A DNA stretch of 64,000 nucleotides from Cladocopium goreaui (taxonomy: Eukaryota > Sar > Dinophyceae > Suessiales > Symbiodiniaceae), in NCBI GenBank assembly GCA_947184155.2, contig CAMXCT020000811.1:122501-186500 (forward strand). Reading direction: 5' to 3'. The position numbers were made by a program, and so were the translations under genes. Below are positions 17,641 through 59,751 of the stretch, piece after piece; position 1 is the stretch's first letter; every line of letters starts with the position of its first letter. The notes below the pieces were generated by a model, which did not search any database, was not told the DNA's origin, and saw nothing but the letters and a program-made list of their open reading frames with translations.

Positions 17641-17959
17641 TCGATTTCGACCACCTAAAGCAGGTGTGAACATCTCCAAACTGAAATACCGATTGACGGT
17701 CATCCTCAACCGGGAGTCAGGGGTAGTGGAAATATTGGGGGACCCTGAAGAGTGGAAGACCCTTTCAAAACGTAAGCAGATCAGGAAAGCTAAGCCTGCT
17801 AGGATCTGTGTTACTGTGTTTGGGGATGATGGGGAAGATGACTATCCTCTGGGAAAGAACCTGGCTGAGGGTGACGGGAAATCTGATGTGGAGACAAAGG
17901 GTCCTGTGGTGGTAGCGTCACAGACTCGGACTGTTCCCGAATTGGACCAGATGGACACG

Positions 17960-19150
17960 ACGGATGGTCAGGATGAAATCGTTGAGAAACCCAAACATCT
18001 CATGCAGGGTCATCCTCCGAAATGTATCCCAAAACATGGACCCCAATATCTTTCATTGCCTCATGAGGATCAATTGTGGATAAGGGAGACACATCATAAG
18101 ATGGGACATCCTGACACAGAGAGATTTGCAAGGTTTCTGAAGTCAACGCATGCATCGTCCGACATCGTTGCAGGATCACTGGACTTTCAATGTGATGCAT
18201 GTGTAGAGTCTCAAAAGGGATTTCAGGCGACCAGGCAGGCAGCAATTCATGAAGACATTGGTTTTAATCAGGTTGTTGGAATGGACATGGCGTTTTGGAC
18301 GAGTCAGAAGGGGGTTCGTTTTGGTTTGTTCATGTTGTGGATGAGGGTACTCTGTTTCAACAGGCAGTGCCATGTCAGGAAAGTGCTGCAGCGCAGTTTC
18401 AAGCATTTCAAAATTGCTGGCTGACCTGGGCGGGACCCCCTAAAGAAATGTATTTTGACCCAGCAACAGAATATCTGTCAGAGGAGTTCTTGACTCGGTT
18501 GCAAGAAGAGGGGATCCAGGCACGGGTCACTGCCAGGGACAGCCATTGGCAGGCAGCTTGGTCGAACTGAAATTCATGGAGCAATCCTGAAAAGGATGCT
18601 TGAGCGAATGGATGCTGAACATCCAGTGGAGTCTCCTGAACAGTTTTCTCATTACTTGGTTCAAGCCGTGTGTGCCAAAAATTCACTATCTCGGGTTAAG
18701 GGATATACCCCGGAACAAGCGGTGTTGGGGATTTCCAGGCGCTTGCCTGCGTCAATTGTTTCTGACACCTCTCAAACAAGTCACACATTGGCAGATGGAG
18801 ACACTACTGAGAGTGATCAGTTTCGTGCGGCGTTGTCCCGGCGCAGTTTAGCAAGGAAAGCCTTCATCGAGGCTGATAACTGCAGCAGCTTGCGGCGTGC
18901 CCTGCTCCGAAGAACCAGGCCAATCAGAGAACCCTTCGAAGAAGGGGATTGGGTTCTTTACTGGAAAAGGAAAGGAGGAAATTTAAGGAGGGAGCGGGGT
19001 AGATGGTATGGTCCTGCCAGAGTGGTCCAAGTTGAGGGGAAGAGGGTCATTTGGCTGGTTCATGCGCATCAGCTCGTCCGAGCGAGCCCGGAACAACTCC
19101 GGCCAGCGTCCATGCGTGAATGGAAGGCTGTACAGAGCTCAGAAGAAGCA
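17960..19150 (+). pseudogene. Integrase domain (zinc-binding, DDE core, C-terminal)
   Basis: A pre-integrase HHCC region (HHKMGHPDTERFARF, later CDACVESQKGFQ) precedes the catalytic core. Core acidic residues can be placed in VGMDMAFW, FDPATEY and, after the GGCA duplication, the GRTEIHG segment. A C-terminal SH3-like block (EEGDWVLYWKRKGG ... RGRWYGPARVVQVEG) ends near 19120. Two frameshifts split the core, so this copy cannot make an intact integrase. Confidence 0.8.
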
Positions 19151-19539
19151 ATGATCCCCGTGAAATCCTGGCTTCAGAAAATTCATGCACAAGACTTCTT
19201 TAACTTGGAGTCCGAAGAGATTCCAGGTGAAGAGGATTTCCGAACTGAGCCAGATCCAGTAATTGACCACGAAACCCTTGAATCATCGGGATATGATCCT
19301 TCAATTGGGGAACCTGAGAGGGAGGTAACCTGTGAGGGGGTAGAGAAGATACCTGGGGATTTTGGGGGAATTGGGACTCCTGTACCGGATGATGGTGATT
19401 TACTGTTTGGGGACACTGTGAACTTCTGGCATCCTGATCCAACAAAAATGTGGGAAATTGATATTACACCCCCGAGCTGTGATCCAAGTTGGTCTTGGGA
19501 AAATCCAGAGGAAATTGTATGTGTGGCAACTGAGACCAG

Positions 19540-20640
19540 GAAAAAGAGGGTTGAGGTTGCTTTGAAAGACCTTGGAGAAGAGGACCAACTCAGGTTTGCA
19601 GCAGCCAAGGACAAAGAAATTCGTGCATGGCTGCATCATCGCACTGTAAAAAAGGTTTCAAAGGGCCGAATTCCGGAACATGCAGTCATGCGATGCAGGT
19701 GGTTGCTCACATGGAAGGGAGCCAATGGAGATGAGCCTCCAGGTGAACTGGCCTTGAACGGTAAGAAGGGGCAAAGGCTAGGTTGGTGATCATAGGATAT
19801 GAGGATCCAGATATCTCTACAATCAAGAATGATAGCCCGGCTTTGTCAAAGGATGGTAGGCAAACAGTTCTCCAACAGGTGAGCAGCCACAAATGGCCGC
19901 TGGTGTCATTTGACATCAGCACGGCGTTTTTGCATGGCAAGGGGGACGGCCGGAATCTGGGATACACCCTCCACCGGAGATCAAAGAGGCTCTCTCAATG
20001 GATGATGGGGATCAATGTGCACTAAGTGGAGGGGCTTATGGAAGGATAGACGCCCCTTACTTGTGGTTTTGTGAATTGAGAGATGAACTCTTACGACAAA
20101 ACTGTCGTCAGTGCCCGTTGGATCCATGCGTTTTTACATATGGGAAGACTGGACCCGATGGCAAATACAAGCCATTGGGATGCCTTGGGATTCATGTGGA
20201 TGATGGCATCGGTGGGGGAACCCCGGAATTCCTAGAAATGTTAGGCAGGGTGGAAAAGCAGTTCAAGTTTGGAACGTTTGAGACAGGGGAGTTCAAGTAT
20301 ACTGGAATTCAGTTTAAACAATGGGACGATGGGAGCATTGAATATGACCAAAAGGGTTACATAGAGAGGATAGAGCCCATTTCGACTCCAAGGGAGCGCA
20401 AAGCTAGGCCAGAGACTGCTGTTGATGACAAAGAGAGACATGCTCTCAGAAGTCTCATTGGTGCACTCCAGTATGCAGGCGTTCATACCCGACCGGATTT
20501 GTGCGCCAAGATTGGCGAGGTTCAAGCGTCGGTGACACGTGCCACCATAGCTGACTTGATGCAATGCAACCGCATTTTGCACGAGGCAAAAAGCCATCCG
20601 GTGTCTCTCATGGTGCTGCCCATTGAACCAAAAAGGGTGA
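19540..20640 (+). pseudogene. Copia-type reverse transcriptase domain
   Basis: Motifs in order: RCRWLLTWKGAN (start of fingers), SFDISTAFLHGKG (motif A, catalytic Asp), SGGAYGRIDAPYLWF (motif B, usual copia Y-G-L changed), LGIHVDDGIGGG (motif C, HVDD instead of YVDD). Two frameshifts lie between the first block and motif B. Confidence 0.8.
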
Positions 20641-21140
20641 CCTTTTGTGCATTTTCTGATGCAAGTTTTCTTTCAAGCAAACACAGCACAGCTCATCAGG
20701 GGACTTTGGTGTTCACAACTACCCCTGAAATTTTGGAGAATAAACGGGCAGTGGTAGCACCAGTTGCATGGTCCAGCAAAAAGGTGCCCCGTGTTGTACG
20801 CAGCACCTTAAGTGCAGAGGCGGCAGCACTCAGCAACTCAGTAGACAGACTTCTTTGGCTGAGAATGCTGTGGGCATGGGTCGAAGACCCTGACTGTGAA
20901 TGGGGCAGTCCAGAGGATGTGCTTCAAAGCGAAATGTAGTTACAGACTGCAGGTCCATGTTTGATATACTTACCAGAACAGCAGTTCCAAGCTGTACAGA
21001 GCACAGAACGACCATCGAATGCCTTCTCATCCGTGAACGTCTCAAATCAAATTGTGATGTCAGGTGGGTGACTAGTCAGGCCATGTTGGCGGACTGTTTG
21101 ACAAAGACAATGGACTCATCGGTTTTGAGGGAGTGCCTAC
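20640..21140 (+). pseudogene. Copia-type RNase H domain
   Basis: CAFSDASFLSS supplies the first catalytic Asp, VRSTLSAEAAALSNS the Glu helix, and after a frameshift VTDCRSMFDILTR the next Asp. The tail WVTSQAMLADCLTK is the usual copia RNase H ending. The frame then continues about 90 codons to a stop at 21412. Confidence 0.8.
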
Positions 21141-21581
21141 GAACAGGTCGGTATTCTTTGTTTGATGAGGATTTGATACTCAAACAACGTGCGGATGGAA
21201 GACAGAGACTCAAATGGGTCAAGGATCAGAAAGAGCCTGAAGATAACTCTGATCCAAATTTGACTGAAGACAGTCAACCAGTGATGGTCTCTGAACATTT
21301 TGGATCTCAAGATTTTTGGAAACTTGGACCTGGAGACATGGTGCGTAGGATCCACGTGCTGCCAAGAACGAGAAGGTTTGTCCCTATTGGGGTTACTGGG
21401 TGTCCCCGGTGATATCAAGGAGTTGTCTGCTTGTAGGGAGACTAGAGTAAAGGGGTGAAAGACTGAGAAAGACTTTTGGCCCGGAACACGTGGTGCTGCA
21501 CCTTTATCCAGTCCATGGACAGGTGAAACTGTCTTCTTCAGGAAGAAAGCCAAGTAGGGTTTTCTAGCAAAGAATAAGGTG

Positions 21582-25639: not shown

Positions 25640-26790
25640 GTAGTGTAGGTAGGTAGCTTAGGTAGCTTAGGTAGCTTAGGTAGCTTAGGTAGCTTAGGTA
25701 GCTTAGGTAGCTTAGGTAGGTTTGGTAAGGTTAGGTAAGGTTAGGTAAGGTTAGGTAAGGTTAGGTAAGGTTAGGTAAGGTCAGGTAAGGTTAGGTAAGG
25801 TTAGGTTAGGTAAGGTAGGTAAGGTAGGTAAGGTAGGTAAGGTAGGTAAGGTAGGTAAGGTAGGTAAGGTAGGTAAGGTAGGTAGGTAGGGAGGTAGGCA
25901 GGCAGGCAGGCAGGGTAGGCAGGGTAGGTAGGGTAGGTAGAGTAGGTAGGGTAGGTAGGGTAGGTAGGGTAGGTGGGGTAGGTGGGGTAGGTGGGGTAGG
26001 TGGGGTAGGTGGGGTACGTGGGGTACGTGGAGTAGGTGGGGTAGGTGGGGTAGGTGGGGTAGGTGGGTTAGGTACGGTTAGGTAAGGTTAGGTAAGCTTA
26101 GGTAAGCTGAGGTAAGCTTAGGTAAGCTTAGGTAAGCTTAGGTAAGCTTAGGTAAGCTTGGGTAAGCTTGGGTAAGCTTAGGTAAGCTTGGGTAAGCTTA
26201 GGTAAGCTTAGGTAAGGTTAGGTAAGCTTAGGTAAGCTTAGGTAAGCTTAGGTAAGCTTAGGTAAGCTTAGGTAAGCTTAGGTAAGCTTAGGTAAGCTTA
26301 GGTAAGCTTAGGTAAGGTTAGGTAAGGTTAGGTAAGGTTAGGTAAGGTTTGGTAAGGTTTGGTAAGGTTAGGTAAGGTTTGGTAAGGTTAGGTAAGGCTA
26401 GGTAAGGCTAGGTAAGGTTAGGTAAGGTTAGGTAAGGCTAGGTAAGGCTAGGTAAGGTTAGGTAGATTAGGTAGGTTAGGTAGGTTAGGTAGGTTAGGTA
26501 GGTTAGGTAGGTTAGGTAGGTTAGGTAGGTTAGGTAGGTTAGGTAGGTAAGGTAGGTAAGGTAGGTAAGGTAGGTAAGGTAGGTAAGGTAAGGAAGGTAA
26601 GGTAGGTAAGGTAGGTAAGATAGGTAGGGTAGGTAGGGTAGGTAGGGTAGGTGGGCAGGTGGGTAGGTAAGGTAAGGTAAGGTAAGGTAAGGTAAGGTAA
26701 GGTAAGGTAAGGTAAGGTAAGGTAAGGTAAGGTAAGGTAAGGTAAGGTAAGGTAAGGGTAGGTAGGTAGGTAGGTAGGCAGGTATATATG
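25640..26790. repeat. GGTAAG minisatellite, about 1.15 kb
   Basis: Blocks of TAGCTTAGG, GGTAAGGTTA, GTAGGTAAG, GTGGGGTAG, GGTAAGCTTA and finally (GGTAA)n follow each other, so the array is a patchwork of related 5-11 bp units. It is strictly purine-rich on the plus strand. Its long minus-strand frames (LTLPYLTLPYLT and similar) are artefacts. Confidence 0.95.
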
Positions 26791-27497
26791 CAGTGTATAA
26801 ATCCGCCGACCCCGCTTGCAGCAGGGGGAGCGCGTCAGAGAAGACATTACAAGCAGCCAGTGGCAAGAAATGATGACACAGCAAACTGTAAGAGCCAGAG
26901 AGAGGGGAGCAGACAAAGAAGAAAGCAAGGAGCAAGAGCAAGCGAGCAAGGCGGAAACAAAAGAGATAAGGAAGACGAAAGCAAGGCGACGGACAGCAGC
27001 ATTTTTTCTGGTACTTTGATGGTGAAATACCAGAGGCATTTCCCCAGACCCCTTGACATCGCCTTCTCTCCAGAATGAACTTTGTCACCGTGGCCGCCAG
27101 CGACAGCCTTTGATGCACCTGGACGGAGGCATAACCATAAGAACCAATCGAGTTATAAATTGTCATAAATAGAATATATTATAACCAACAATTACTATTA
27201 CAGTAAAACTAATTGGTTATAACCATAATAGATTAATCCATCATTAATAACCATAATCAGTTATAAAATTATGAGTAGTACTACTAACCAGTTTCAGTAG
27301 TACTAATTATTGCTAAATATTAGTAGTACTACAAACTAATAAAATAATTAGCAATAATGAGTCCAAGTATCATCATCAATATTTTCTTTAGAGTTCAAGA
27401 TATTTGCTCGGGCGAGATATTCGTACCATCAGTCTGGATATACTCCTGGGATCTTATAATAAATCTCAACCAAGCTGAAGGCCATTGGTAACTTCAC
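26791..27497. other. Intron sequence, no gene seen
   Basis: A GC-rich stretch at 26805-27060 rich in AGAGAGCAAG-type purines is open on plus (Arg/Lys/Glu-rich) and minus (Leu/Ser-rich). It lacks a convincing acceptor-donor pair and looks like decayed simple repeat. ATAAATCCGCCGACCCCG at 26797-26814 recurs at 36986-37003. Confidence 0.35.
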
Positions 27498-27568
27498 CAA
27501 CATTCATGGCTAGGCTTAAAGGATTCAACGGCGGAAAGTGCGTGTTCCCACTTGGATGCGCATCCCAG
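27498..27568 (-). CDS. Exon of the long unidentified gene
   Basis: 71 bp with acceptor ACTTACGAG and donor TTG|GTGAAG. Reads LGCASKWEHALSAVESF and on to PSHEC. The spacing W-x-x-AL-x-x-x is reminiscent of one helix pair of a PPR repeat, but a single motif is not enough to assign that family. Phase fits both neighbours. Confidence 0.45.
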
Positions 27569-28517
27569 CTCGTAAGTGGTCCTTAACCATACTCACGCAG
27601 CACCCCAGTCATACAATCAGTACATATACGGGGGGATAGTCCCTTTATGTATATAATATATATATATATATTATTCATGTATATATATATATATTATTCA
27701 TGTATCCGTTTATGTATCTATTTATGTTTTTATGCATTTATTTATTTACTTTATTCATTAAGTTATTTATTTATTCAATGTTGTAATTTGTTTGTTAATC
27801 TATTTATACATGTATGTAGTATGTGTTATTCACCAGTCACTAAAAGGGATGCAAAGGTGTCTCCAAAAATTGGAAACCCCTCAGTTTCATCCGTCTAGAT
27901 TGCTCATGATTCCCCCGAAAGTCTCACTATGTCAATAGCATAACTTGAGGTACACCACATTTCTGGACAACCCCATATTATATTCTGAGTCACAATAGTC
28001 ATATATAATCATATATGTATATATCCTCATTCAACCCCCATGCAATCCCCATGGTCCATGAAATGCTTGGTGTCATTTCCACATAGGTTTATCTGAAAAT
28101 ATGGTACACCGCATGTGCTGTTTAAAGACCATTGTTGCCATTGAATTTGCCAGCAAATCCCTTGCTAAATAATCAACTATCATACTACCTTGTTAGTTAT
28201 ATTCCCATTCTACAGTAATCCCTTTGTTGGTTATTGTCGCTTCTCTATCCTATGATCTCCTCATTTTTGTTGCTTGCACCCGCCATGTTCCATCTGCTTG
28301 GTGTTCTTCCAATCCCTTCCCCCCTTCCCCCTAGTGTTGGACATTCCCATCATATCCCCATTGTCTCACCATTTTTCCGAGTTACAAGCTCAAAACCTCC
28401 ATTGATGGGGGATTTCCCATTGCCACGTTTGATTACCGGAGGGTCCGGAGGGTAATTCCCTGCTTTTTCATGGCAAATCTACCCCACATCCTCCAATGGC
28501 GTAATGTCGGCCCTCGC

Positions 28518-28556
28518 CTCCGCAATGCGCTCGGCATGCGCCAGGAGCTCTTCCGC
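28518..28556 (-). CDS. Exon of the long unidentified gene
   Basis: 39 bp, exactly 13 codons (AEELLAHAERIAE), acceptor ACGAAGAG, GC-type donor (GAG|GCGAGG). Strong alpha-helical pattern and very high GC against an AT-rich intron background. Confidence 0.55.
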
Positions 28557-29773
28557 CTCTTCGTGTGGATATCCCATACTTAGTTCACAACAATTGTCTC
28601 ATGGTATTGATACTTGGATGAGACTACAACAAAGAAACCACCTGCTTATCAGCGCTTGAGAAGAAGAAGAAGAAGAAGAAATGTAGTGAGAGGATTTGGA
28701 AACGAGAAATTCCGTTGATGCCCTACATGCAAAATGGCCCTAGCTGGCTCTCACCGGGGAATGAAAAATCTCAAATTTACATCCTCACGGAAATATACAG
28801 TGATCTTGGATCATGCTTGGAGATTGGCTGGGAAGATGAATTTCACTGCAGCAATGTGAAGTAGAGATGGCAATAGTATTGCCAATAGAGTCAAATTCCC
28901 CTATTGGATGATTATAATCCACAATATGTTGGGTAGTATAATCCCCTATAATCATCAACCAATAGGGGTTTTGAACACTGCTCAAATGGGAACTAAAGCA
29001 GCAAGAATTGAGATGACCGTGCCGGTGAGACCTCAGTCAGTTGCCGGGAGGCATCTTCGTAGCATCCAAAATGGACCAGGCGTATACCTTGCAACAGGGC
29101 GTTCCCACACTAGGAAAAATGAGGATGTACAGGGGATGTGATGGATATATGGTGTATGCGAAGACAGCGTATACCCCAAGTTTGCCAGCTTGTTGGGCTA
29201 GTACATCATCAGCAACATGGGTATACTTTGGGATGATCTCATCCGCATATACCCACATGAACAGGAGGATGTGCTCCAATATTAATGCTCCAAAGGTTAT
29301 ACATTGTGCCTACATAATCATACATATACATATATCATGTATAATCATGTATACATATCCACAATATAAATATCTATATATATATATACTATATAAATTA
29401 CATGTAACATGTAAAGATAATCAATATATCTGGATAAATCTAAACATAAGTTCAATCTGAAAAGTTCGGCCATATGGGGATGATTCCCCCCATACTTGGG
29501 CCAAACATCTCCCAACTTGTGCGGGGGAATTACGTGTCATTACCATGGTTATATCAATGGTTTCTCCATTAAAAACCAGTAATGTTAGCATTCTTAAGTA
29601 GCATGGAAAATCATTACTCATTGTTAACCCATCTCAACCATGAAGTAATACAACCATGGATATGTTAACCATGGGATCAAACATCCCTAAGTAGCATTTG
29701 ATCATATCAAGCATGAATAATCCCAACTAAGTTAACTACACCCCTAAGCGCAGCATTTCTGGTGACATCACTC

Positions 29774-29815
29774 GCCTTTGGTCAGAAGGCGATCTGCAGC
29801 GGCTTCGAGGGTTTC
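29774..29815 (-). CDS. Exon of the long unidentified gene
   Basis: 42 bp, 14 codons (ETLEAAADRLLTKG), acceptor TCCTAGCAG. The donor is read as GA-type (GGC|GAGTGA) because that keeps phase with the next exon. A GC-type donor two bases earlier (AAAG|GCGAGT) would break phase. Confidence 0.5.
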
Positions 29816-30229
29816 CTGCTAGGACTGCTTGGCGGAGTGCGTACACCTAGTTGGATTCCCTAGGTATACGTGTATATATAATTATATAAATATATGTATA
29901 TATACATTCATTATTATTACTATATATATATACGAATTATACAAACATACATAAATATATTTATATATTATTACAGATATGTTCATACAAATATATTCAA
30001 TATAGGTATGATAATATAAGCCACGGATCGCGAATGAAATAATTTATAACTTCAGAGACCGGACGGAAAAATGGGAGATTCTTGGGGTATCCAATGTTTT
30101 CTCAAAGCCATATTTCAACCGGAAGGGTTCCAAACTCAAACTCAAACCCATAGAGTTGAAGCCTTCATCTCCAGAAATGATTCAAACATCAGACATAAAT
30201 CCGCGTAAATATGTATCTGTATATATATA

Positions 30230-31200
30230 TATACACACATACATACATACATACATACATACATACATACATACATACATACATACATACATACATACAT
30301 ACATACATACATTACATACATACATACATTACATTACATACATACATACATTACATACATACATACATAAATACATACATACATACATACTAACATACAT
30401 ACATACTAACATACATAACATACATAACATACATAACATACATAACATACATAACATACATAACATACATAACATACATTACATACATTACATACATTAC
30501 ATACATTACATACATTACATACATTACATACATTACATACATTACCTACATTACATACATTACATACATAACATACAATACATACATTACATACATTACA
30601 TACATTACATACATTACATACATTACATACATTACATACATTACATACATTACATACATTACATACATTACATGCATTACATGCATTACATGTATTGCAT
30701 ACATTACATACATTACAATCATTACATACATTACATACATTACATTACATTACATATAATACATACATTACATACATTACATACATTACAGACATTACAT
30801 ACATTACATACATTACATACATTACATACATTACACACCTTACACACCTTACACACATTACACACATTACACACATTACACACATTACACACATTACACA
30901 CATTACACACATTACACACATTACACACATTACAGACATTACAGACATTACATACATTACATACATTACATACATTACATACATTACATACATTACATAC
31001 ATTACATACATTCCATACATTCCATACATTCCATACATTCCATACATTCCATACATTCCATACATACCATACATACCATACATACCATACATACCATACA
31101 TACCATACATACCATACATACCATTACATTACATTACATACCACTACATACCATTACATTACATTACATTACATTACATTACATACATACATACATATAT
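30230..31200. repeat. TACA / TACATTACA microsatellite array
   Basis: Nearly 1 kb of (ACAT)n grading into (ACATACATT)n, with local variants ACACACATT, CATTCCATA and CATACCATA forming homogeneous sub-blocks. Sub-blocks of a variant repeated many times point to local expansion by slippage or unequal exchange. It creates a 403-codon spurious open frame. Confidence 0.95.
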
Positions 31201-31947
31201 ATATATATATCATATGTCTGTTTACAGCACATCTCACTGGACGGGCCTTCGGCCTTCGCCTGCCACTGCCAGGGCTCCAGGCAGAGTCGCTTCCATGTCG
31301 ATTTGCTCCCCATGGTGGCGAACTTTCTGAGATCTTTTTGGGGAGCAAAGTGCAAAAACCATGGTGAATTCCTGGTGAATCGATGTTCATTGACCCACAA
31401 AAAAAATGTTCATTCAAAAATTGATGTGAAAAAATGGTGAATACCAATGTCTGAAAAATTGATGTTCATTGACCCACAAAAATAACCTACATGGGGAGAT
31501 ACCCCACAGAATTGGACCTGTTCTTGGCTCCGACAGGAACAGGAACACGGAATGGTTTCATAAATGTTATGCCTGTAGCTCTTAGCATTTATCATAAAGT
31601 TACATGATGTGACAATATCTCCTCTATACCCTTGGCAAATGTGAGAGGTTGTGCACTCTGCAGATGCCATTGTTTGCTTCGTGATTTTGCGGCCCGAACC
31701 ACATCATCTTGCCATGGAAATAAGTTTGCTTCGTGGCTGAGCCAAAAAGAAAGGCAGGGTCATGCTCTGAAATTTTGATGGCCTACGAGGGGTTACCAAA
31801 AGACGGTAGAAAAGTCCATCACTCTGCATGTTTATCATGATTTTGTGCAAACTATTGGACATGTTACCTTTCAACCGTGTTCTTTTGCACGCTGTAGCAT
31901 CCAGCTTCAGCTACCGCAAAATCTTATGGTTAAGAAGCTATACAGTA

Positions 31948-32047
31948 NNNNNNNNNNNNNNNNNNNNNNNNNNNNNNNNNNNNNNNNNNNNNNNNNNNNN
32001 NNNNNNNNNNNNNNNNNNNNNNNNNNNNNNNNNNNNNNNNNNNNNNN
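31948..32047. other. Assembly gap (100 N)
   Basis: Exactly 100 Ns, the usual placeholder for a gap of unknown size. The right edge enters (CATA)n directly, so the gap probably hides more microsatellite. Confidence 0.99.
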
Positions 32048-32603
32048 CATACATACATACATACATACATACATACATACATACATACTAACATACATAA
32101 CATACATTACATACATAACATACATTACATACATAACATACATTACATACATTACATACATTACATACATTACATACATTACATACATTACATACATTAC
32201 ATACATTACATACATTACATACATTACATACATTACATACATTACATACATTACATACATTACATACATTACATACATTACATACATTACACTACATTAC
32301 ATACATTACATACATTACATACATTACATACATTACATACATTACACTACATTACACTACATTACATTACATTACATTCATACATTACATACATTACATA
32401 CATTACATACATTACATACATTACATACATTACATACATACATTACATACATACATTACATACATACATTACATACATACATTACATACATACATTACAT
32501 ACATACATTACATACATACATTACATACATACATTACATACATACATTACATACATACATACATACATCCATCCATCCATCCATCCATACATACATACAT
32601 ACA

Positions 32604-32634
<31 letters not shown>

Positions 32635-32695
32635 CATACATACATTAATTACATTAGATTACATTACATTACATTACATACATACATACATTATA
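32048..32695. repeat. TACA / TACATTACA microsatellite array, right of gap
   Basis: Same unit family as 30230-31200, ending in (CATC)n and (TACA)n near 32565-32640. It may be the far side of one large array or an independent expansion. Confidence 0.95.
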
Positions 32696-33534
32696 TATAT
32701 ATATGTTGTGGGAGGCTTTAACAGACCACTATTTATGCTGCAGTGTGCCCAGCAGCATCATGGTGACTTCGGGCAGTGAGGCTCTCACAGTTCATCATGT
32801 TTTCCCTTCTTTGACACTTCAGAATCGCTGTTTTGCTGACAAAATAGCCATAAATCAGGGTAGATAATGATAATTATAATATGTTACCAACCTGAAAGAA
32901 GGCGAATTTCTTTCGCCTTATGCTCGTCAGCACCCTGCCAGATTCGGCCAAGTGAAAGCTGATAGAAAGTGAAAAGACAAGAAAGTCGAAGGAATGGTTA
33001 CCGCAAGGTTACCGCAATTCTACCATCTTTGCAAATGGGCCACCACAGACTCCTCCTTGGGCAATGGACAGCTCTGAGTATGTCCAAGCCCCCAAATCTG
33101 GCAAGGCAAACTTCCGATCGGGAAAAAAACCATGGCACCCCAAAATTCCTTCAACATTTGTTGTTTATGAAGTGTTCTTGGGTCCCACCTGATGCTGGAC
33201 ACTTACCCGGAAACCAGCCAGATGGCATACAGTGACTTATCTACTCAATGACCTGTTTTAGGACTTTTGAAGGGCTGAGGCTGATTTAGACCCTTGACTC
33301 CCTCCCCAGATCATCTGCGAATAATATCAACGTCTCGTGTTAATGGATGGATGAATGAAAAAAGAAATGAATAAATGCAAAGATCATAGATGAAGGAAAA
33401 ACATATACTGTATGTATAGGCAAATAAACGGATATGCACAAATAGATGTTTGATAAATCATTGACAATGGTATACAATAGTAATATCCGATTTATCCAAT
33501 AACAAATCAAAATCTTCTAGTTGGACATCCGATC

Positions 33535-50086: not shown

Positions 50087-50349
50087 AGGCTTCGATTCTT
50101 GCACTGTTTTGACTCCACAGCACGACCTGTAAGGTTTTTCAGGCTGTGACTCAGTCATCAGCCAACCTTCAAAGGAAATCTTTCTGAAATGGTACGGTCA
50201 TCCATGGCAGGATGATTTCACAACAGTTTTATTTCTTCAACTCATCCATGGCAGGATGTTTTGCAAAACAACACATGCAATCCATGGCAGGATTGGTTCG
50301 AGAAAAAAATAAAAATGACTCACAAACGCATTGAAAAGTTTGGTCTTCC
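50087..50349 (-). repeat. Split direct repeat B2 (outer 3' end)
   Basis: 263 bp matching B1 (50467-50701) except for 28 extra bases at 50281-50308. Contains TCCATGGCAGGAT three times. The outer end reads (TA)n-GGCTTCGATTC on the plus strand. Confidence 0.9.
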
Positions 50350-50389
50350 GTCCCTCTCAGCTCTTTTCAGAGTGGTGGGAGAGGCTGGG

Positions 50390-50467
50390 TGAACTGAAAA
50401 GGGGCTTAACCATGAACAAGTGGAGTCACGTTCCAGATCTCAGCCTAACTTTCTGCAAGAAAAACAA
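50390..50467 (-). repeat. Split direct repeat A2
   Basis: 78 bp, identical by eye to A1 at 57836-57913. It abuts B1 directly: AAAAACAA|GGCTTCG on the plus strand reproduces the sequence expected if the two outer ends were joined in a circle. Confidence 0.92.
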
Positions 50468-50701
50468 GGCTTCGATTCTTGCACTGTTTTGACTCCACAG
50501 CACGACCTGTAAGGTTTTTCAGGCTGTGACTCAGTCATCAGCCAACCTTCAAAGGAAATCTTTCTGAAATGGTACGGTCATCCATGGCAGGATGATTTCA
50601 CAACAGTTTTATTTCTTCAACTCATCCATGGCAGGATGTTTTGCAAAACAACACATGCAAATAAAAATGACTCACAAACGCATTGAAAAGTTTGGTCTTC
50701 C
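50467..50701 (-). repeat. Split direct repeat B1
   Basis: 235 bp immediately 3' of the recombinase ORF in element sense. Two copies of TCCATGGCAGGAT, versus three in B2. Likely includes transcript 3' signals, but none is identifiable. Confidence 0.9.
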
Positions 50702-50708
50702 ACGACCC

Positions 50709-51662
50709 CTAAACTCGACACTTGTGTTGATATGGGTGCCAGCGTCGAATCATTTCTTTGGTCTTGGAGGAAAAGGTCATTGATGGAATCTTGGAAAGGC
50801 CATCTTGTATATACACTTTGGCCACTTGTGCTGAATTCCAGCGTCCTTTAAGCAGTGCGCGCTCCATGGAGCCTGTGGACTGAAACGTCCACGTTGCGCC
50901 ACCGCGCCTCAGTGAATAAGGGCGAAAACAGTGATGTAAAAGATCGAACTTCCGACAATAAAATGTGAATCTGTTCCTAAAAGCCTGTGGTGAAGCTTGC
51001 CAAATGGGCACTCTCGTCAACCCCTGAAATTCACGCAATTTGATTGCTTCACGGATAGCATCCAGAGCAAAACTGTCATCAAAAGCAATGGTCTCACCAG
51101 CACCATGCCTTACCCCAGTCTTAGTGATGGGGAGACTGAGAACACCCTCGTCAGCACCCAAAATGAAATGTTCAGGGCAGGCGTTGAGTATTTCTCCGGT
51201 GCGGAGCAAGGCGAAGAAGCCTAAAAGAAGTAGCGCTGCAAAAATTAAGTCATCATGATGGAGTGCATGGTGCGCTAACACATAGACCAAGTCAAGTGTA
51301 AGAGGAGGCGCCCGGTTTGGGGCTTCCAGTTTCCGCCATGTGCGGAACAGCTTCCAAGTGTTAGGGATGCACTTTTTCGTACTGGGCTCAAAATGATGGA
51401 GCCCACAAAGGGCATCACTGACAAAACTCAATGTCTGACCCCTTTCCCATTGCCTTTCCAGCCAGTCACTGATATTATCATCCAAATGAGACAAATGTTT
51501 GGTCTTCTCAACGGTCAGTAATAGCCTGCGTAAGGCGACATAGTACCTTTCTTGGGTTCTTTCAGTGATGGCGGCGTCCGCCAAAATTACATTCTTTCGT
51601 TGCGCTTTGCGTTCTGCTGTGGTTGTTTTGGCCAAAAACTTAGGCCTCACGACTCGCCCCAT
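50709..51662 (-). CDS. Tyrosine recombinase of the YR retrotransposon
   Basis: 317 residues. It should integrate the circular DNA intermediate by strand exchange. The catalytic-domain landmarks are in order: first Arg in FALLRTGEIL (about residue 151), a Lys in ITKTGVRHGAG, second Arg in YSLRRGGAT (about 250), GRWNS, and the nucleophile Tyr in AKVYIQ (about 283). The usual H-x-x-R box is Y-x-x-R here, seen also as the RRGGAT context of DIRS/Ngaro recombinases. An N-terminal helical region (residues 20-120) would be the core-binding domain. The start overlaps the Pol stop by 23 nt in another frame, suggesting reinitiation or frameshifting. Confidence 0.85.
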   Translation of the reverse strand: MGRVVRPKFLAKTTTAERKAQRKNVILADAAITERTQERYYVALRRLLLTVEKTKHLSHLDDNISDWLERQWERGQTLSFVSDALCGLHHFEPSTKKCIPNTWKLFRTWRKLEAPNRAPPLTLDLVYVLAHHALHHDDLIFAALLLLGFFALLRTGEILNACPEHFILGADEGVLSLPITKTGVRHGAGETIAFDDSFALDAIREAIKLREFQGLTRVPIWQASPQAFRNRFTFYCRKFDLLHHCFRPYSLRRGGATWTFQSTGSMERALLKGRWNSAQVAKVYIQDGLSKIPSMTFSSKTKEMIRRWHPYQHKCRV

Positions 51663-54600
51663 CAGTGGGGTTGTGAGATGATTCTACATGGGCCACGACC
51701 AAAGTCAGCCCATGTGCCAACAAATAGGCGTTGAGGATCTTTAAAGTTCGATTTAGAAGACGACTACTGCTCCGACCCTTTCCGATGATAGACATGCAAA
51801 CATAACTGTCGGTGATGTGGAAAATTCTGTAGTTCACCAGTTTGTGATGATTGACTGTAAAAACCACTGATTGCAAAATAGAACGCAGTTCTAAGAGGTT
51901 TATGTGTTCCTTATGCTGCCACTGAAATTTAAAAACAGGCTTCCAATGCCACCACTCGGCTTCAATGCTTTGACGGGGAAAGGCTTTCGGAACCATGATC
52001 TCACCTGTGCTGATGCGTACGTCTGAGCCAGTATGATTGACCTTTGTTAACAACAAACGGTTTAGGTCTTGAACTGAAAGAGATTGATCAGGGCAGGTAG
52101 AACCATACTGAAGTTTCCTAGCAAGGGGGGCTCTCAATCTCCATGGTGCCCTGAAACCAGGAGCCATGCCCATGCGGCTGCAAAGGTGTTCATATGAAAA
52201 AGTAGGAGTGAAGTTTCGACACATAGCCGCAGCCACAATCACAAAGGAATAGATACTGAATGAGTCTCCCAGTAACGAAAGTCGTTCGTTTTCGTACCGT
52301 TTCTTAGACCCTTTGATGTCAGAAGCACTATAGCACAATTCAGTATGGTTATATCCGTACCCCAACAAAAGTTCCCGTTCGATTGAATCAGCTAAACGCC
52401 ACTTGCCGTTCCTCCAAAATACAAATCTCTCAATGTAATGATATGGGGGGAATTTGAAGTCGTCAGAAGCCCATCGCCCTTGAGTGTCTTGGTCACACCT
52501 GGCCAACCCTGCTGGACAAGGAGGAGGTCTTTTTCTCTCAATAGCCTTCATGGCTGTGGGGAGAACTTCTCCCCACAATCCAGGTTCCCAAGATACGCCC
52601 GTTTCCAACCATTGCTGTTGATCAGGGTAGGCATTTTTCGCTGTGACCTTCCACCAGTAATGTTCTTCGTCAATTTCAATGCCAGTAACAGCATCCCACA
52701 GGGACTCACTCGTCCAACACAGGCGTGGTCTGTTCATCGGGACGGCATCACTGCTGTTCAAATGAAAAGGAACTGTTTCCAACTCAGCGGAAATCTCCTC
52801 CAAGTCTTTCTTCGGCATGGAGGCCACATTTTCAGTAGCGTACTTGACAGTAAAAGTAGGCTCACACTCCTGTTTCAAGAGCTTGATGATCCTAACCACC
52901 TCATAGAACAAGCTTGATTGGGCACCAGCCAATCCTTCACGACCCGCCTTTGCCGAAGACAAGTCCACACAGGGAAAGCCTGCCCAGAGGTGTAGTTCCC
53001 TTACTTCAGGAAATTTCAGCAAGATCTCCCAAAGGAGCTCTCTGTCCAAGGACCTCACATCTCCATACTGCAATGAGTGCGGCCAGCGGCGAGAGCATAC
53101 CCTATTTGCAGGACCATGTATATCAAAACTTACCAAACCCACTGGTGAAAAACCCAGGATGTCGTATGTTCGGAATGCTCCCCCTATTCCATTAAAGAGT
53201 GAGATCACGAGCACTGGAATCACACCCGTGTTCCGCTGACTAAACAAAGAAGTGGTAAGGTAATCTTTCCCTTCATCAGTCAGACTGTCTGCAAGGCCTA
53301 CAGCACCTCCAAAGTGTGACGCATCTGAGGCAGTAGTAAAAGCACTAACACCTGAGGCCAGGTTTGCTTGCATAAGGGGAGCTCCTGCCACACAGGCGAA
53401 GAGTTCCCGGCGAACTCTGCGCACCAAGTCTAGTGAAAATTGTTTTCTACCCACGAATTCCCAAATAGCTTCAAAGAAGCCCATGGCAGGCCTGCGAAAT
53501 TGCATAATGTGGACCCATCGTCCTGCAATGACCTGAAGTTGTTTCTTTGACAAGTGTGGCCTACTCAAGATCCAGATGGTGGCTTGTAAGAGGCGTAAGA
53601 GCCTCTCTGGTGATGGACCCAAGGTCTTTGAATCACCTGCGATGAAACCACCCAGTTCTTCTCCCAGCAATACACCACTCTTTCTCTTCTTTTCGGCCGA
53701 TATCACATGAGCTGTGGCCCATGCAGCTTCTGCTGTGTCGTGCAATGCATTTCCACTCACAATGGTTTCAGAAGGGTTCACAAGTTGCCCAGCAGCGAAA
53801 TTGTCCAAATAAACGTGCCACCACGTGCGGTGGGATTGCTTGGCAGTCTTCAATAGCCCTACCATCCAAAGGGGAACTGACTTGTTCCGTGCCAGTTGGT
53901 GCTCACTGCTGAGAGAATATTTAAGCAACAAGTTTTCAGAAATCTCCTGCATCACTGAAACAGAGGATAACCAGCCCATTGGTAAAACCATACAACTCAA
54001 TGCATAACTAATTCCCGGCTTGAGGCCCAACGACTCACCATTCCGCACAACGTTGAAACTTAGGTATCTTGCCCAACAATCTGGCAAACGAAAAAGGTAG
54101 AAAGCGTTTGACATGTCAGATTGCCACACACGAATGACTTCATCATCTTCAGCAACACACGACATCCAAGACGTAATCCCCGGTAGATTCTTAGTAGACC
54201 CTTGAAGCTGTAATAAAACAGAATTTGAGGGTACCAGATTCATGATGATACGCAGAGCAGATTTTCCTGAGGGTGTAGTTGCACTCTTTTCCACTCCAAA
54301 AAGCCCATTTAATAACTTCTCCCCGCGGTATGTCGCAACTTCGGACAAGGGGGTCCAGCAGCAAATACCCCGCTCAACCATCAAATCCGCAATAGCATGA
54401 AGATCTTCTTCCACAATGTGAATCTTTCCCTGCAGTTTGGGGAGTTTCTGACCCTTGTCGGGGAGTAGGCACAGTTCAGGATTCAACAACAACCTACGGG
54501 TGAAAGGTGAAACAAACTCCAACAAATCAATACTACCACCATGACCAGGAGGAGGCAAAGAAGGGAGAATCTGTTCAAGTGAAAGGCGATGACATGTTTT

Positions 54601-55218
54601 TACCTCCCCCCCACTATAGGAGACACGCGTCAGCTTGACATCTTTTTCAATGGCACTCAAGTCGGCTCGCATGTCAACACTGTGGCGCCACATGTTCTTC
54701 ACAGCGCCACGTATGGAAAGCACAACCCTCTTTTCGGCCTGGCTCCATCCCCCAAGCTCAAGTGGGGACTGCTGGCCATGAAGGGTATTACATGCGTAGC
54801 ATGCCAACAAGGTCCAAGCATCTTCAGTGAATTCTTGCACAAAGGCGTGTTGCAAAGCCGCAGCAAATGAACTCTCCAGGAGCCTGTCTCTTACCATTCT
54901 CAGTTCTCCCAGCCTCACAGGCAGGGCCACGCGCTTACGGCTGGCCCGGGGCCATGCTGTGGAACAAAACAAGGTGAAGAAAAGAGTTGACTTCTGTGAG
55001 TGCAAATGTCCTGCAGCTGACTGCACAAAGACCCAAGCCAGCGCACATCCTGTAATGGCGGTTGACGTGCACTTGCTCAGTATATCAGTGAAACTAGGGA
55101 CCCAAAATGGGCCTTGACTGGGAGAGCTGGCCGGTGCAGGCCCAATGGGGCCTTCTGAAGGCCCCTCACAAGCACATTTGGGTCCAGGCACGGCGACAGC
55201 CAGCCTCCCATCTCTCAT
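51640..55218 (-). CDS. Pol: reverse transcriptase - RNase H interrupted by C5 cytosine DNA methyltransferase
   Basis: I start this at 55218, where ATG overlaps the stop of the Gag-like ORF as ATGA. This gives 1192 residues. The frame is open further upstream but overlaps two better ORFs. RT: motif A QSDMSNAFYLF (about 370), motif B CMVLPMGWLSS, motif C VYLDNF (about 471; YLDN replaces YxDD). RNase H: first Asp in TASDASHFGGA (about 631), Glu in HINLLELRS (about 1109), next Asp in HITDSYVC (about 1135), end HNPTDGASR. Between them sits a C5 methyltransferase: motif I LFNGIGG (about 674), III GDVR, IV GFPCVDLS with catalytic Cys (about 749), VI ENV (about 797), VIII NRPRLCW (about 831), X LLGDSFSIYSF (about 985). 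Expected products: cDNA synthesis and methylation of cytosine, perhaps on the element's own DNA. Confidence 0.9.
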   Translation of the reverse strand: MRDGRLAVAVPGPKCACEGPSEGPIGPAPASSPSQGPFWVPSFTDILSKCTSTAITGCALAWVFVQSAAGHLHSQKSTLFFTLFCSTAWPRASRKRVALPVRLGELRMVRDRLLESSFAAALQHAFVQEFTEDAWTLLACYACNTLHGQQSPLELGGWSQAEKRVVLSIRGAVKNMWRHSVDMRADLSAIEKDVKLTRVSYSGGEVKTCHRLSLEQILPSLPPPGHGGSIDLLEFVSPFTRRLLLNPELCLLPDKGQKLPKLQGKIHIVEEDLHAIADLMVERGICCWTPLSEVATYRGEKLLNGLFGVEKSATTPSGKSALRIIMNLVPSNSVLLQLQGSTKNLPGITSWMSCVAEDDEVIRVWQSDMSNAFYLFRLPDCWARYLSFNVVRNGESLGLKPGISYALSCMVLPMGWLSSVSVMQEISENLLLKYSLSSEHQLARNKSVPLWMVGLLKTAKQSHRTWWHVYLDNFAAGQLVNPSETIVSGNALHDTAEAAWATAHVISAEKKRKSGVLLGEELGGFIAGDSKTLGPSPERLLRLLQATIWILSRPHLSKKQLQVIAGRWVHIMQFRRPAMGFFEAIWEFVGRKQFSLDLVRRVRRELFACVAGAPLMQANLASGVSAFTTASDASHFGGAVGLADSLTDEGKDYLTTSLFSQRNTGVIPVLVISLFNGIGGAFRTYDILGFSPVGLVSFDIHGPANRVCSRRWPHSLQYGDVRSLDRELLWEILLKFPEVRELHLWAGFPCVDLSSAKAGREGLAGAQSSLFYEVVRIIKLLKQECEPTFTVKYATENVASMPKKDLEEISAELETVPFHLNSSDAVPMNRPRLCWTSESLWDAVTGIEIDEEHYWWKVTAKNAYPDQQQWLETGVSWEPGLWGEVLPTAMKAIERKRPPPCPAGLARCDQDTQGRWASDDFKFPPYHYIERFVFWRNGKWRLADSIERELLLGYGYNHTELCYSASDIKGSKKRYENERLSLLGDSFSIYSFVIVAAAMCRNFTPTFSYEHLCSRMGMAPGFRAPWRLRAPLARKLQYGSTCPDQSLSVQDLNRLLLTKVNHTGSDVRISTGEIMVPKAFPRQSIEAEWWHWKPVFKFQWQHKEHINLLELRSILQSVVFTVNHHKLVNYRIFHITDSYVCMSIIGKGRSSSRLLNRTLKILNAYLLAHGLTLVVAHVESSHNPTDGASREA

Positions 55219-57071
55219 TTCGGCTTGTCCTCGGCCTTGTCCTTGTTCTTCTCCCAGTCGCGTTGTGTCTTCTCCCAGGAGGCACCCTGATTGCCCCCCC
55301 ATTTGCCTTTTCCCTTCTTTCCTTTTCCGCGTCCTTTGGCATTGCCTTTGCCCTCGTCTCGATTGTCCCCATAGGACCACTCTCCTTTGCCACGGCCTGC
55401 CCGGCCTTTGCCAGCAATGCCACTCGCGCCGCTTAGAGGTAGCGCTCCGACCGCCTTTGAAACCAGTCTGGCATGCTTCCTGGTGGCCAACACTGTAGCG
55501 TGACCGGCGGCTGAGCTGTCTTCCATGGGGTGCAGCTCCATGTGACGAGCCGTCGACCAAGAAGCATCCACCAGGCTCTGGTGGATGGCCATGTAGCGTG
55601 CCGCCAATGTATCCCCCAGGCTGGCGACGTCTCCTGACCTCAGCTGATCTATGGAGATGGAGAGATGGTGTAACTCCCTCAGTTCTCTCAAATGGTGGGG
55701 ATAGGACGGCTTCACAAAGAGGTTGAAGTGGCTCATCACCTTGATGCCGGAGGTCAAAGAGCCGCTTTCGCTCCCACATTCCAGAAGTGCTGTCTGATCC
55801 ATCTGTTGTCGAATGTGGTCCACCAGAAGCCGCAGCACTGATCCAGGGTTGTCCCTGCTCTTCTTCTGCATAGGCGCTTCCAGCTCCGCATCTGGACTCG
55901 CCTTCTCCGACGCTTCCTCCTCCGAGTAGTCGCTGCAGCTGGGACTGGAGCTGACAATCGTCCCATCTTCCAATCTCCTCTTCTTGCGCTTCTTCCGTTT
56001 CTTGTCTGAGTGTATCTCTTTCCCTGTGAGAAGCTTGACCAGCGTCTCGGTGAGCTTCGTGGAACGACTCTTGCCCTTCTTGGTCCTTTTCTGTCTCTTG
56101 TCCTCTTTCCGCTTGGAGGTGACTTCCAAAGCTTTGCGAACCAATTGGCCACTCAAGCTGCTCGTAGTGATGTCTTTTAAAGCCAGCTGGTTGGAGTCCC
56201 TCGACTTCAGAGGGCGTCGTGGGTCCCCAGAAGTTCTCGCCTTCTCCTTCTTCTTCAACTTGGGCTCCACATTCATCCCATTGATCAGTCCTTCGTCCTC
56301 CGCATAGCCTGAGTCTATGGTTGAAGACACCTCTGAACCCCGGCTCTCTACATCTGACCCTGGTATCTCCTCTACCTCCTCGGACTCTTTCACCTTCCCT
56401 TGTAAACGTTCTCGAGTCTCCTTCAAACGCTGCCTGAGCTCTTGCCTTTTCTGGTCGTCCTCTTTTGTCTTTCTCAGAGCCGGTGGCCTTGGCTCCTCCT
56501 CTGCAGGTGCACGACGTCCAGGACCGCGTTTGGGGGCCGCGCCGGGATCTTTGGCTGCTGGCTTGCGCCGGCCAGGACCCGCCGGCGCCCCAGGTTTGGC
56601 CTTGGCTTTGCGAGGGGCACGGGTTTCCCCAGCCTCCTTCAGCCATCGATCTGCTAAGGCCAAACGTTCTGCTGTAACATAGACCTGATCCCTCATGAAG
56701 GCACTCATATCCCACAACCTGACACGAGTTGCATGTAGGCCTTGAGAGGTGTCGACGCCGTCCATGTCCGGGGCCACGCATGGCTCTGAGAGACATAGAT
56801 GAATAAAATAGGGGGCGTCGTTGAAAGCCCGGTCCAGCTCGGCATCGTAGGAATTGTTGGTGCATCCCAAGTGCTTGCATTCCAGAGCCAGCGAACCGTC
56901 TATCCAATTGGAGACCTTGAGAATCACAAAGGATGCCCAATGTTCCACGGGGTCGCGGAAGGTAGAGCGCGCCAGGAAGACCTCGATGACCTGTCCTCGA
57001 GTGGGAGACAAAGCTGACCAAGCCTGTAGCTGGTCCACATCTACATCCTCTCCTGTGTCCTCTTTCTCCAT
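55215..57071 (-). CDS. Gag-like protein of the YR retrotransposon
   Basis: 618 residues. An acidic N-terminal globular part (residues 1-130, with Cys/His-containing ECKHLGCTNN) is followed by Pro/Ala/Lys-rich linkers, long Lys/Arg/Glu-rich stretches (KKRKKRKKRR near 330), a helical region around residues 400-520, and a Gly/Lys tail (GKGNAKGRGKGKKGKGKWGG) typical of nucleic-acid binding. No zinc knuckle. Position before Pol and composition suggest the particle or RNP protein. Its TGA stop shares two bases with the Pol ATG. It begins 8 nt after the preceding ORF. Confidence 0.7.
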   Translation of the reverse strand: MEKEDTGEDVDVDQLQAWSALSPTRGQVIEVFLARSTFRDPVEHWASFVILKVSNWIDGSLALECKHLGCTNNSYDAELDRAFNDAPYFIHLCLSEPCVAPDMDGVDTSQGLHATRVRLWDMSAFMRDQVYVTAERLALADRWLKEAGETRAPRKAKAKPGAPAGPGRRKPAAKDPGAAPKRGPGRRAPAEEEPRPPALRKTKEDDQKRQELRQRLKETRERLQGKVKESEEVEEIPGSDVESRGSEVSSTIDSGYAEDEGLINGMNVEPKLKKKEKARTSGDPRRPLKSRDSNQLALKDITTSSLSGQLVRKALEVTSKRKEDKRQKRTKKGKSRSTKLTETLVKLLTGKEIHSDKKRKKRKKRRLEDGTIVSSSPSCSDYSEEEASEKASPDAELEAPMQKKSRDNPGSVLRLLVDHIRQQMDQTALLECGSESGSLTSGIKVMSHFNLFVKPSYPHHLRELRELHHLSISIDQLRSGDVASLGDTLAARYMAIHQSLVDASWSTARHMELHPMEDSSAAGHATVLATRKHARLVSKAVGALPLSGASGIAGKGRAGRGKGEWSYGDNRDEGKGNAKGRGKGKKGKGKWGGNQGASWEKTQRDWEKNKDKAEDKPK

Positions 57072-57079
57072 TGTGCCGA

Positions 57080-57826
57080 CTAAAGGCGATCAAGGGCTTC
57101 ACGGCCCTTGTGTAACGAAAGCTCCAAGAGGGCCGGACTGGCCTTCCTGTGGACCCTGAGTTGCGGGTTCTCAGCCAACCTGGACAACCTCTGGTGTTTG
57201 CGCCCTCCTCTGTGGGTGCTACCTCTCTTCCTTTTCGACCTGTGGGTGTGCGACTTGTCCTCTGATCTCCTGTCCCTGTCACGGTCACTGCGACGCTCAC
57301 GGCCAGGGCCGGCGCCACGCCTGTCTTGTCCTCTGCGATCTGGGCTCCTATCAGGACCTGGGGGCTTGCGCTTGGCGGCAGCGCCGTCGTAGATCTGATC
57401 TGGGCTCTCTTCTTCTTCTTCTTCTCCTTCTTCACCTGCTTCTGTCGCCTCCTCTTCCTTAGGAACTGGTGGCGGCGGAGGCGCTGGTGGAGCAGGGAGA
57501 ATAGGTCGAGCACGGGGAAGCTCTGGTCTCTCAGCCGGGCCGGAACGCGCGGTGTCACGTCGCGGGCGCGACTGGCTAGCACTGGCAGAAGCGCCAGGTG
57601 CCGCCCTGTCAGCCGTGCGACTTAAACCAGCGCTCAACGACCTGAGGCCACGAACCTGTCGCACACAGGATATGACCAGATCACCAGCCCGCACTCGGGC
57701 CCCTTGACTGTCCCAATGCCCGGCTAACTCTCTTCCCAAAGCCTCCCACCCTGTGCAAGCTAAACACCACGAATCTCCTTCAGCAGCTGGAGTCTCCCTA
57801 CACTTAGCGCACAGCGGGGGAGGCAT
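57080..57826 (-). CDS. ORF1 of the YR retrotransposon: CxxC/CxxC, RS-rich basic protein
   Basis: 248 residues. Starts with a zinc-ribbon-like C6-x2-C9 ... C21-x2-C24 (LCAKCRETPA...WCLACTG), then a Pro-rich segment, an acidic run (GEEGEEEEEE, about 125-140) and an Arg/Asp/Ser-rich tail (RRSDRDRDRRSEDKSHTHRS). Likely an RNA- or chaperone-type accessory protein, but no family was recognised. It starts just inside the A1 repeat, so the element's leader is about 90 nt. Confidence 0.65.
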   Translation of the reverse strand: MPPPLCAKCRETPAAEGDSWCLACTGWEALGRELAGHWDSQGARVRAGDLVISCVRQVRGLRSLSAGLSRTADRAAPGASASASQSRPRRDTARSGPAERPELPRARPILPAPPAPPPPPVPKEEEATEAGEEGEEEEEESPDQIYDGAAAKRKPPGPDRSPDRRGQDRRGAGPGRERRSDRDRDRRSEDKSHTHRSKRKRGSTHRGGRKHQRLSRLAENPQLRVHRKASPALLELSLHKGREALDRL

Positions 57827-57835
57827 TCAACTACT

Positions 57836-57913
57836 TGAACTGAAAAGGGGCTTAACCATGAACAAGTGGAGTCACGTTCCAGATCTCAGCCTAACTTTCT
57901 GCAAGAAAAACAA
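57836..57913 (-). repeat. Split direct repeat A1 (outer 5' end)
   Basis: 78 bp, same as A2. The outer end (plus strand ...AAAAACAA|(TA)n) is followed by a TA tract. Expected to include the transcription start, but no promoter motif is visible. Confidence 0.9.
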
Positions 57914-59333: not shown

Positions 59334-59399
59334 CTGGGACAAAGCAGGGATTGAGTTGGCACAGTAACCACTTGCCATAGCAAGCCTTAGAAATACATA

Positions 59400-59690
59400 T
59401 TAGTATGTTATATATATTATATATTATATATTATATATTATGTATTATATATTATATATTAAATATTATATATTAAATATTATATATTATATATGTTATT
59501 ATATGTTGTATTATATTATATATATATATTATATATTATATATTAAATATTATATATTATATATTATATATTATAAATTATATATTATATATTATATATG
59601 TTATATTATATACTATATATCATATATTATCTATTATATATTATATATGTTATATTATATATTAAATTATATATATATCCCCATAAACCA
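59400..59690. repeat. TATATTATA microsatellite
   Basis: Nearly pure A/T array of TATATTATA and TATTAAATATTA units. Its open frames (IYYILYIKYYIL) are artefacts. Confidence 0.95.
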
Positions 59691-59751
59691 AAGTTCTCCC
59701 TGGGGTCGCCATGCCCTGACATCCCTCGTTTTCGTCGCCATGCCGTGGCTC

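What the first reader, a model, noticed from the sequence alone, without database searches (positions are those of the whole stretch)
51640..55218. C5 cytosine DNA methyltransferase nested inside the RNase H domain of a tyrosine-recombinase retrotransposon
Seen directly: the RNase H first Asp (TASDASHFGGA) and its Glu helix (HINLLELRS) are about 480 residues apart, where DIRS/Ngaro-type RNase H normally needs a few tens. The gap holds a full set of C5 methyltransferase motifs (LFNGIGG, GDVR, GFPCVDLS, ENV, NRPRLCW, LLGDSFS). Known: retrotransposon-borne cytosine methyltransferases have been reported in dinoflagellates and charophyte algae, and DIRS elements of other lineages carry an adenine-type methyltransferase near RNase H. 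Inference: the enzyme was captured into Pol and could methylate the element's own cDNA or circle, hiding it from the host or altering host methylation. The nested position is the part that may be undescribed.
Basis: partly seen in the sequence, partly recalled or inferred. Interest (0 to 1): 0.92.

Follow-up and report, generated by a model that had tools for sequence, protein, structure and literature searches.

The report
Methyltransferase nested inside retrotransposon RNase H
A jumping gene, probably from a dinoflagellate, carries a DNA-methylating enzyme that seems to be built into the middle of its RNA-degrading enzyme; elements of this kind are already known, but this nested layout was not stated in the paper passages that were read.

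The parts
57836..57913 (-). A1 terminal repeat (5' end of the element)
   Evidence: 78 nt, identical to A2
57080..57826 (-). ORF1, 248 aa, with a CxxC...CxxC start
   Evidence: open ORF; N-terminus resembles that of homologue P0107 by eye; no convincing family hit
55215..57071 (-). Gag-like ORF, 618 aa, ending in TGA that overlaps the Pol ATG (ATGA)
   Evidence: no convincing family hit; called gag-like from position only
51640..55218 (-). Pol ORF, 1192 aa plus stop
   Evidence: AlphaFold2 model m2f423a5fbd33
53419..54321 (-). Reverse transcriptase core, residues 300-600 (motif A D368; motif C YLDN 470-473)
   Evidence: motifs recalled, invariant in 84 of 84 rows; no Pfam hit; fold not tested by itself
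53239..53361 (-). RNase H first half, residues 620-660: b1 623-633 with D632, b2 637-646, helix 648-660
   Evidence: secondary structure of the model; conservation
52201..53229 (-). DNMT3-type C5 methyltransferase, residues 664-1006 (C750 in GFPC)
51964..52200 (-). Linker, residues 1007-1085, with a conserved NHTGSD; 1066-1072 has pLDDT under 50
51643..51963 (-). RNase H second half, residues 1086-1192: b3 1090-1099, helix A with E1110, b4 then D1137, D1186
50709..51662 (-). Tyrosine recombinase ORF, 317 aa, overlapping the end of Pol by 23 nt
   Evidence: PHROG integrase family phrog_1, E 1.4e-7; no hit in Pfam or NCBIfam and no relevant PDB sequence
50467..50701 (-). B1 repeat
   Evidence: identical to B2 over 194 and 43 nt, apart from one 28-nt length difference (D6 and D11)
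50390..50467 (-). A2 repeat
50087..50349 (-). B2 repeat (3' end of the element), next to a TATATA tract like the other end

Best explanation
A recently inserted split-direct-repeat, tyrosine-recombinase retrotransposon of the SymbioDIRS-Dnmt3 kind, in which a complete DNMT3-type methyltransferase sits as an insertion between strands b2 and b3 of the Pol RNase H domain. The two RNase H halves pack together around it, so one polypeptide carries the RT, RNase H and methyltransferase sites. Most likely (inferred) the methyltransferase works on the element's double-stranded cDNA or circle as RNase H clears the RNA template, so that the new copy is already CpG-methylated, like the host genome, before the recombinase inserts it. 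Shown here by computation: anatomy, order, conservation, identical repeats. Predicted: the nested fold. Shown by others for relatives: CpG activity in yeast.
Confidence: 0.72

Rival explanations
1. The methyltransferase lies between RT and a complete RNase H; the TASDAS hairpin belongs to the end of RT and the real RNase H (first Asp perhaps D1066) is entirely downstream.
For: D1066 is invariant in 85 of 85 rows. 43 of 50 rows start before b3.
Confidence: 0.13
2. The methyltransferase is kept mainly because its removal would break RNase H (structural lock-in), not because methylation helps the element.
For: 149 of 149 retained in nested position. [quoted passage not shown]
Against: Catalytic residues, not just the scaffold, are near-invariant (C750 83/84, ENV 84/84, RxR 84/84). 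Published Ka/Ks is below 0.2 for a majority of DNMT sequences.
Confidence: 0.2
3. The methyltransferase acts on host DNA or on RNA rather than on the element's cDNA.
For: In yeast, related domains methylate the genome and a plasmid without sequence preference beyond CG.
Against: Its placement in RNase H favours the element's own hybrid or cDNA; inference only.
Confidence: 0.2

Closest known systems
SymbioDIRS-Dnmt3 retrotransposons (de Mendoza et al. 2018, PMC5890265)
   Same: DNMT in the Pol ORF with RT, separate recombinase ORF, A-coding-B-A-B repeats, intronless, conserved DNMT residues
   Different: The text read does not say that the DNMT splits RNase H; it speaks of two domain orders in Pol, drawn in a figure I could not see. 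The host here is only inferred to be a dinoflagellate
DIRS1-like elements
   Same: RT, RNase H, a methyltransferase and a tyrosine recombinase
   Different: They carry an adenine (Dam-type) methyltransferase listed after RNase H, and inverted terminal repeats; here a C5 enzyme lies inside RNase H, with split direct repeats
Ngaro / PAT-type elements
   Same: Split direct repeats (A-pol-B-A-B in Ngaro) and a tyrosine recombinase
   Different: The Ngaro Pol is described with RT and RNase H, the methyltransferase only for DIRS
DNMT3A/3B catalytic domain
   Same: Fold over 664-1006
   Different: 21-24% identity in the DNMT3 rows; embedded in RNase H; no other Pfam domain found in Pol
KnitGypsy-Dnmt3 and SymbioLINE-Dnmt
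   Same: Retrotransposon-borne C5 methyltransferases
   Different: Gypsy and LINE backbones; no tyrosine recombinase (recalled)

Membership tests
SymbioDIRS-Dnmt3 | A-coding-B-A-B repeats | tested here: met
SymbioDIRS-Dnmt3 | C5 DNMT sharing an intronless Pol ORF with RT | tested here: met
   the RT itself by motif only
SymbioDIRS-Dnmt3 | DNMT falls in the Dnmt3 clade | tested here: inconclusive
   best PDB sequence 4onj (listed as DNA methyltransferase; DRM as recalled), then DNMT3A; best folds DNMT3; no tree was built
SymbioDIRS-Dnmt3 | separate tyrosine recombinase ORF | tested here: met
   phrog_1 integrase E 1.4e-7
SymbioDIRS-Dnmt3 | one of the two published Pol domain orders | not testable with these tools
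   Figure 1e not held
SymbioDIRS-Dnmt3 | de novo CpG methylation | not testable with these tools
   needs an assay; shown for two relatives in print
RNase HI domain | D-E-D-D catalytic residues in the right strands and helices | tested here: met
   D632, E1110, D1137, D1186; pattern recalled
RNase HI domain | RNase H fold, whole domain | tested here: inconclusive
RNase HI domain | recognised by sequence profile | tested here: inconclusive
   no hit to Pfam or PDB sequences; Pfam fits such elements poorly in print
DIRS1-like (strict) | inverted terminal repeats and Dam-type methyltransferase | tested here: not met
   terminal repeats are direct and split; the enzyme is C5-type
Ngaro | split direct repeats, Pol of RT and RNase H without methyltransferase | tested here: not met
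   repeats fit but a methyltransferase is present

The most novel reading that the evidence does not exclude
RNase H and DNMT3 form one interlocked two-enzyme unit that couples removal of the RNA template to immediate CpG methylation of the nascent element DNA. The nesting makes the methyltransferase nearly impossible to lose, which would explain its long retention across this retrotransposon clade.
Probability: 0.4. Interest if true: 0.72.

Novelty: new variant of a known kind. Interest (0 to 1): 0.55.

Why it matters
The 2018 paper calls the role of these methyltransferases unclear. A methyltransferase built into RNase H would give a physical reason for role and persistence alike: it places CpG methylation where cDNA is freed from RNA, and it makes loss of the domain costly. 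It makes the question testable with one expressed domain and point mutants. As far as I recall (not searched), a whole enzyme inserted between b2 and b3 of a true RNase H is unusual.

Tried and rejected
Sequence profiles for RNase H: full Pol, the second half and the joined halves of the window, 11 joined members one by one and their profile against PDB sequences found no RNase H. The only PDB row was a condensin chain at E 1.2; one of 11 members had a Pfam row, Peptidase_M48 at 0.051. Residue co-variation on 150 rows was dominated by gap and end artefacts; the best pair between the halves came after more than 4000 others. It is not used. Comparison with the RNase H piece of the Copia-like element in this window gave nothing.

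Search for methyltransferase-free relatives: a length-limited RT query and a joined RT-RNase H profile showed no contiguous RNase H among their 120 listed rows each (188 and 171 hits; profiles). P0123 has the first half but no methyltransferase match; its tail matches none of the family profiles and looks unrelated by eye, so I read it as a broken copy. Pattern scans of viral contigs and genome contigs confirmed no relative. Rfam found nothing in the window.

Literature: searches. 'SymbioDIRS' occurs in one held paper. Of PMC5890265 I saw abstract and outline, sections 6, 7, 10, 11 and passages. Of PMC3266345, PMC3783388, PMC6338049, PMC9998398 and PMC12344493 I saw passages only. None of these states that the methyltransferase splits RNase H. 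Figures and supplements were not seen, so an earlier depiction cannot be excluded.

Full report
What is there. On the minus strand between 57913 and 50087 lies one complete element: A1 repeat, ORF1, gag-like ORF, Pol, tyrosine recombinase, then B1-A2-B2. A1 and A2 are identical over 78 nt; B1 and B2 are identical apart from one 28-nt length difference. All four ORFs are open, so the copy is probably young (inference). The gag stop and Pol start overlap as ATGA, and the recombinase ATG (51662) lies inside the end of Pol. Both ends abut TATATA tracts, so a target duplication cannot be judged. The recombinase ORF hits a PHROG integrase family at 1.4e-7 but nothing in Pfam or NCBIfam and no relevant PDB sequence.

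The RNase H. In the full model b1 is 623-633 (with D632), b2 is 637-646, then a helix 648-660 leads into the first methyltransferase strand at 665. After the methyltransferase and a linker of about 80 residues come b3 1090-1099, a helix 1106-1124 with E1110, b4 1130-1136 followed by D1137, two helices, b5 1172-1178 and a last helix from D1186. D632, E1110 and D1137 are invariant in 84 of 84 rows, D1186 in 83 of 83 with a letter.

How general. Three searches listed 120 proteins each, of 363, 188 and 171 hits, 291 distinct in all. With profiles for each part, 149 carry both RNase H halves and 149 of 149 have the methyltransferase between them, 385-414 residues lying between the two matches. The other 142 lack the second half (77 with RT, first half and methyltransferase; 45 RT only; 18 RT and first half; 1 RT and linker; 1 up to the linker); I read them as truncated copies, an inference. 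No contiguous RNase H was seen, but the queries favour this clade and the lists were capped. Mean pairwise identities are alike: RT 0.507, methyltransferase 0.527, RNase H halves 0.506 and 0.565, which suggests like constraint. Some homologues are named Skav by EukProt, which I take as Symbiodinium kawagutii (recalled); the host of the window is inferred to be a dinoflagellate. One JGI protein (P0001, contig of 13,141 bases) is 100% identical over 91% of Pol.

What is known. De Mendoza and colleagues described SymbioDIRS-Dnmt3: DNMT in the Pol ORF with RT, a separate recombinase ORF, A-coding-B-A-B repeats, two Pol domain orders, purifying selection on the DNMT, and CpG methylation in yeast by two copies. 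They propose methylation of cDNA and call the role unclear. The window element fits this kind. The nested position is not stated in what I read of that paper, nor in the passages of the others; Figure 1e could not be seen. In DIRS1-like elements the methyltransferase is Dam-type and listed after RNase H.

How it likely works. In the predicted order the methyltransferase follows b2 and precedes b3 of RNase H. As RT copies the RNA and RNase H removes it, the double-stranded product would lie close to the methyltransferase, which could add CpG methylation before the DNA is inserted. That step is inferred. The element shows no CpG depletion relative to its flanks (0.614 against 0.525 and 0.601), in line with the published lack of a significant difference for SymbioDIRS-Dnmt. 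Nesting also suggests lock-in: losing the methyltransferase without harming RNase H would need a precise deletion. Near-invariant catalytic residues argue that activity matters as well.

Verdict. A real and conserved gene order, with a nested fold well supported by prediction, in a published kind of element: a new variant of a known kind.

Noticed in passing
53800-53811 (Pol residues 470-473): Reverse transcriptase motif C reads YLDN, not the usual YxDD (recalled), invariant in 84 of 84 rows.
   Followed up: partly
13849-21412, + strand: A second, broken Copia-like retrotransposon: zinc knuckle (1.5e-5) and RVT_2 (0.0063), both below Pfam cut-offs. A stretch DLLEVYCEDDSNLT...MAPECKDWGNFSR in its first ORF looks by eye like a degenerate methyltransferase-type fold, unsupported by any profile.
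   Followed up: partly
50087-50701: B2 is 28 nt longer than B1, by about one more copy of a CCATGGCAGGAT-containing unit, as if by slippage.
   Followed up: partly
57083-57826: ORF1 begins with a CxxC...CxxC segment that resembles by eye the N-terminus of the long gene model P0107, so it is probably real coding sequence of unknown function.
   Followed up: no
51997-52041 (Pol residues 1060-1074): An NHTGSDVRI segment between methyltransferase and RNase H is highly conserved (D1066 85 of 85), yet 1066-1072 has pLDDT under 50. Its role is unexplained.
   Followed up: partly
26438-32779 and 59373-59714: Long simple-sequence tracts that stay open as ORFs, and a 100-N gap at 31948-32047.
   Followed up: no
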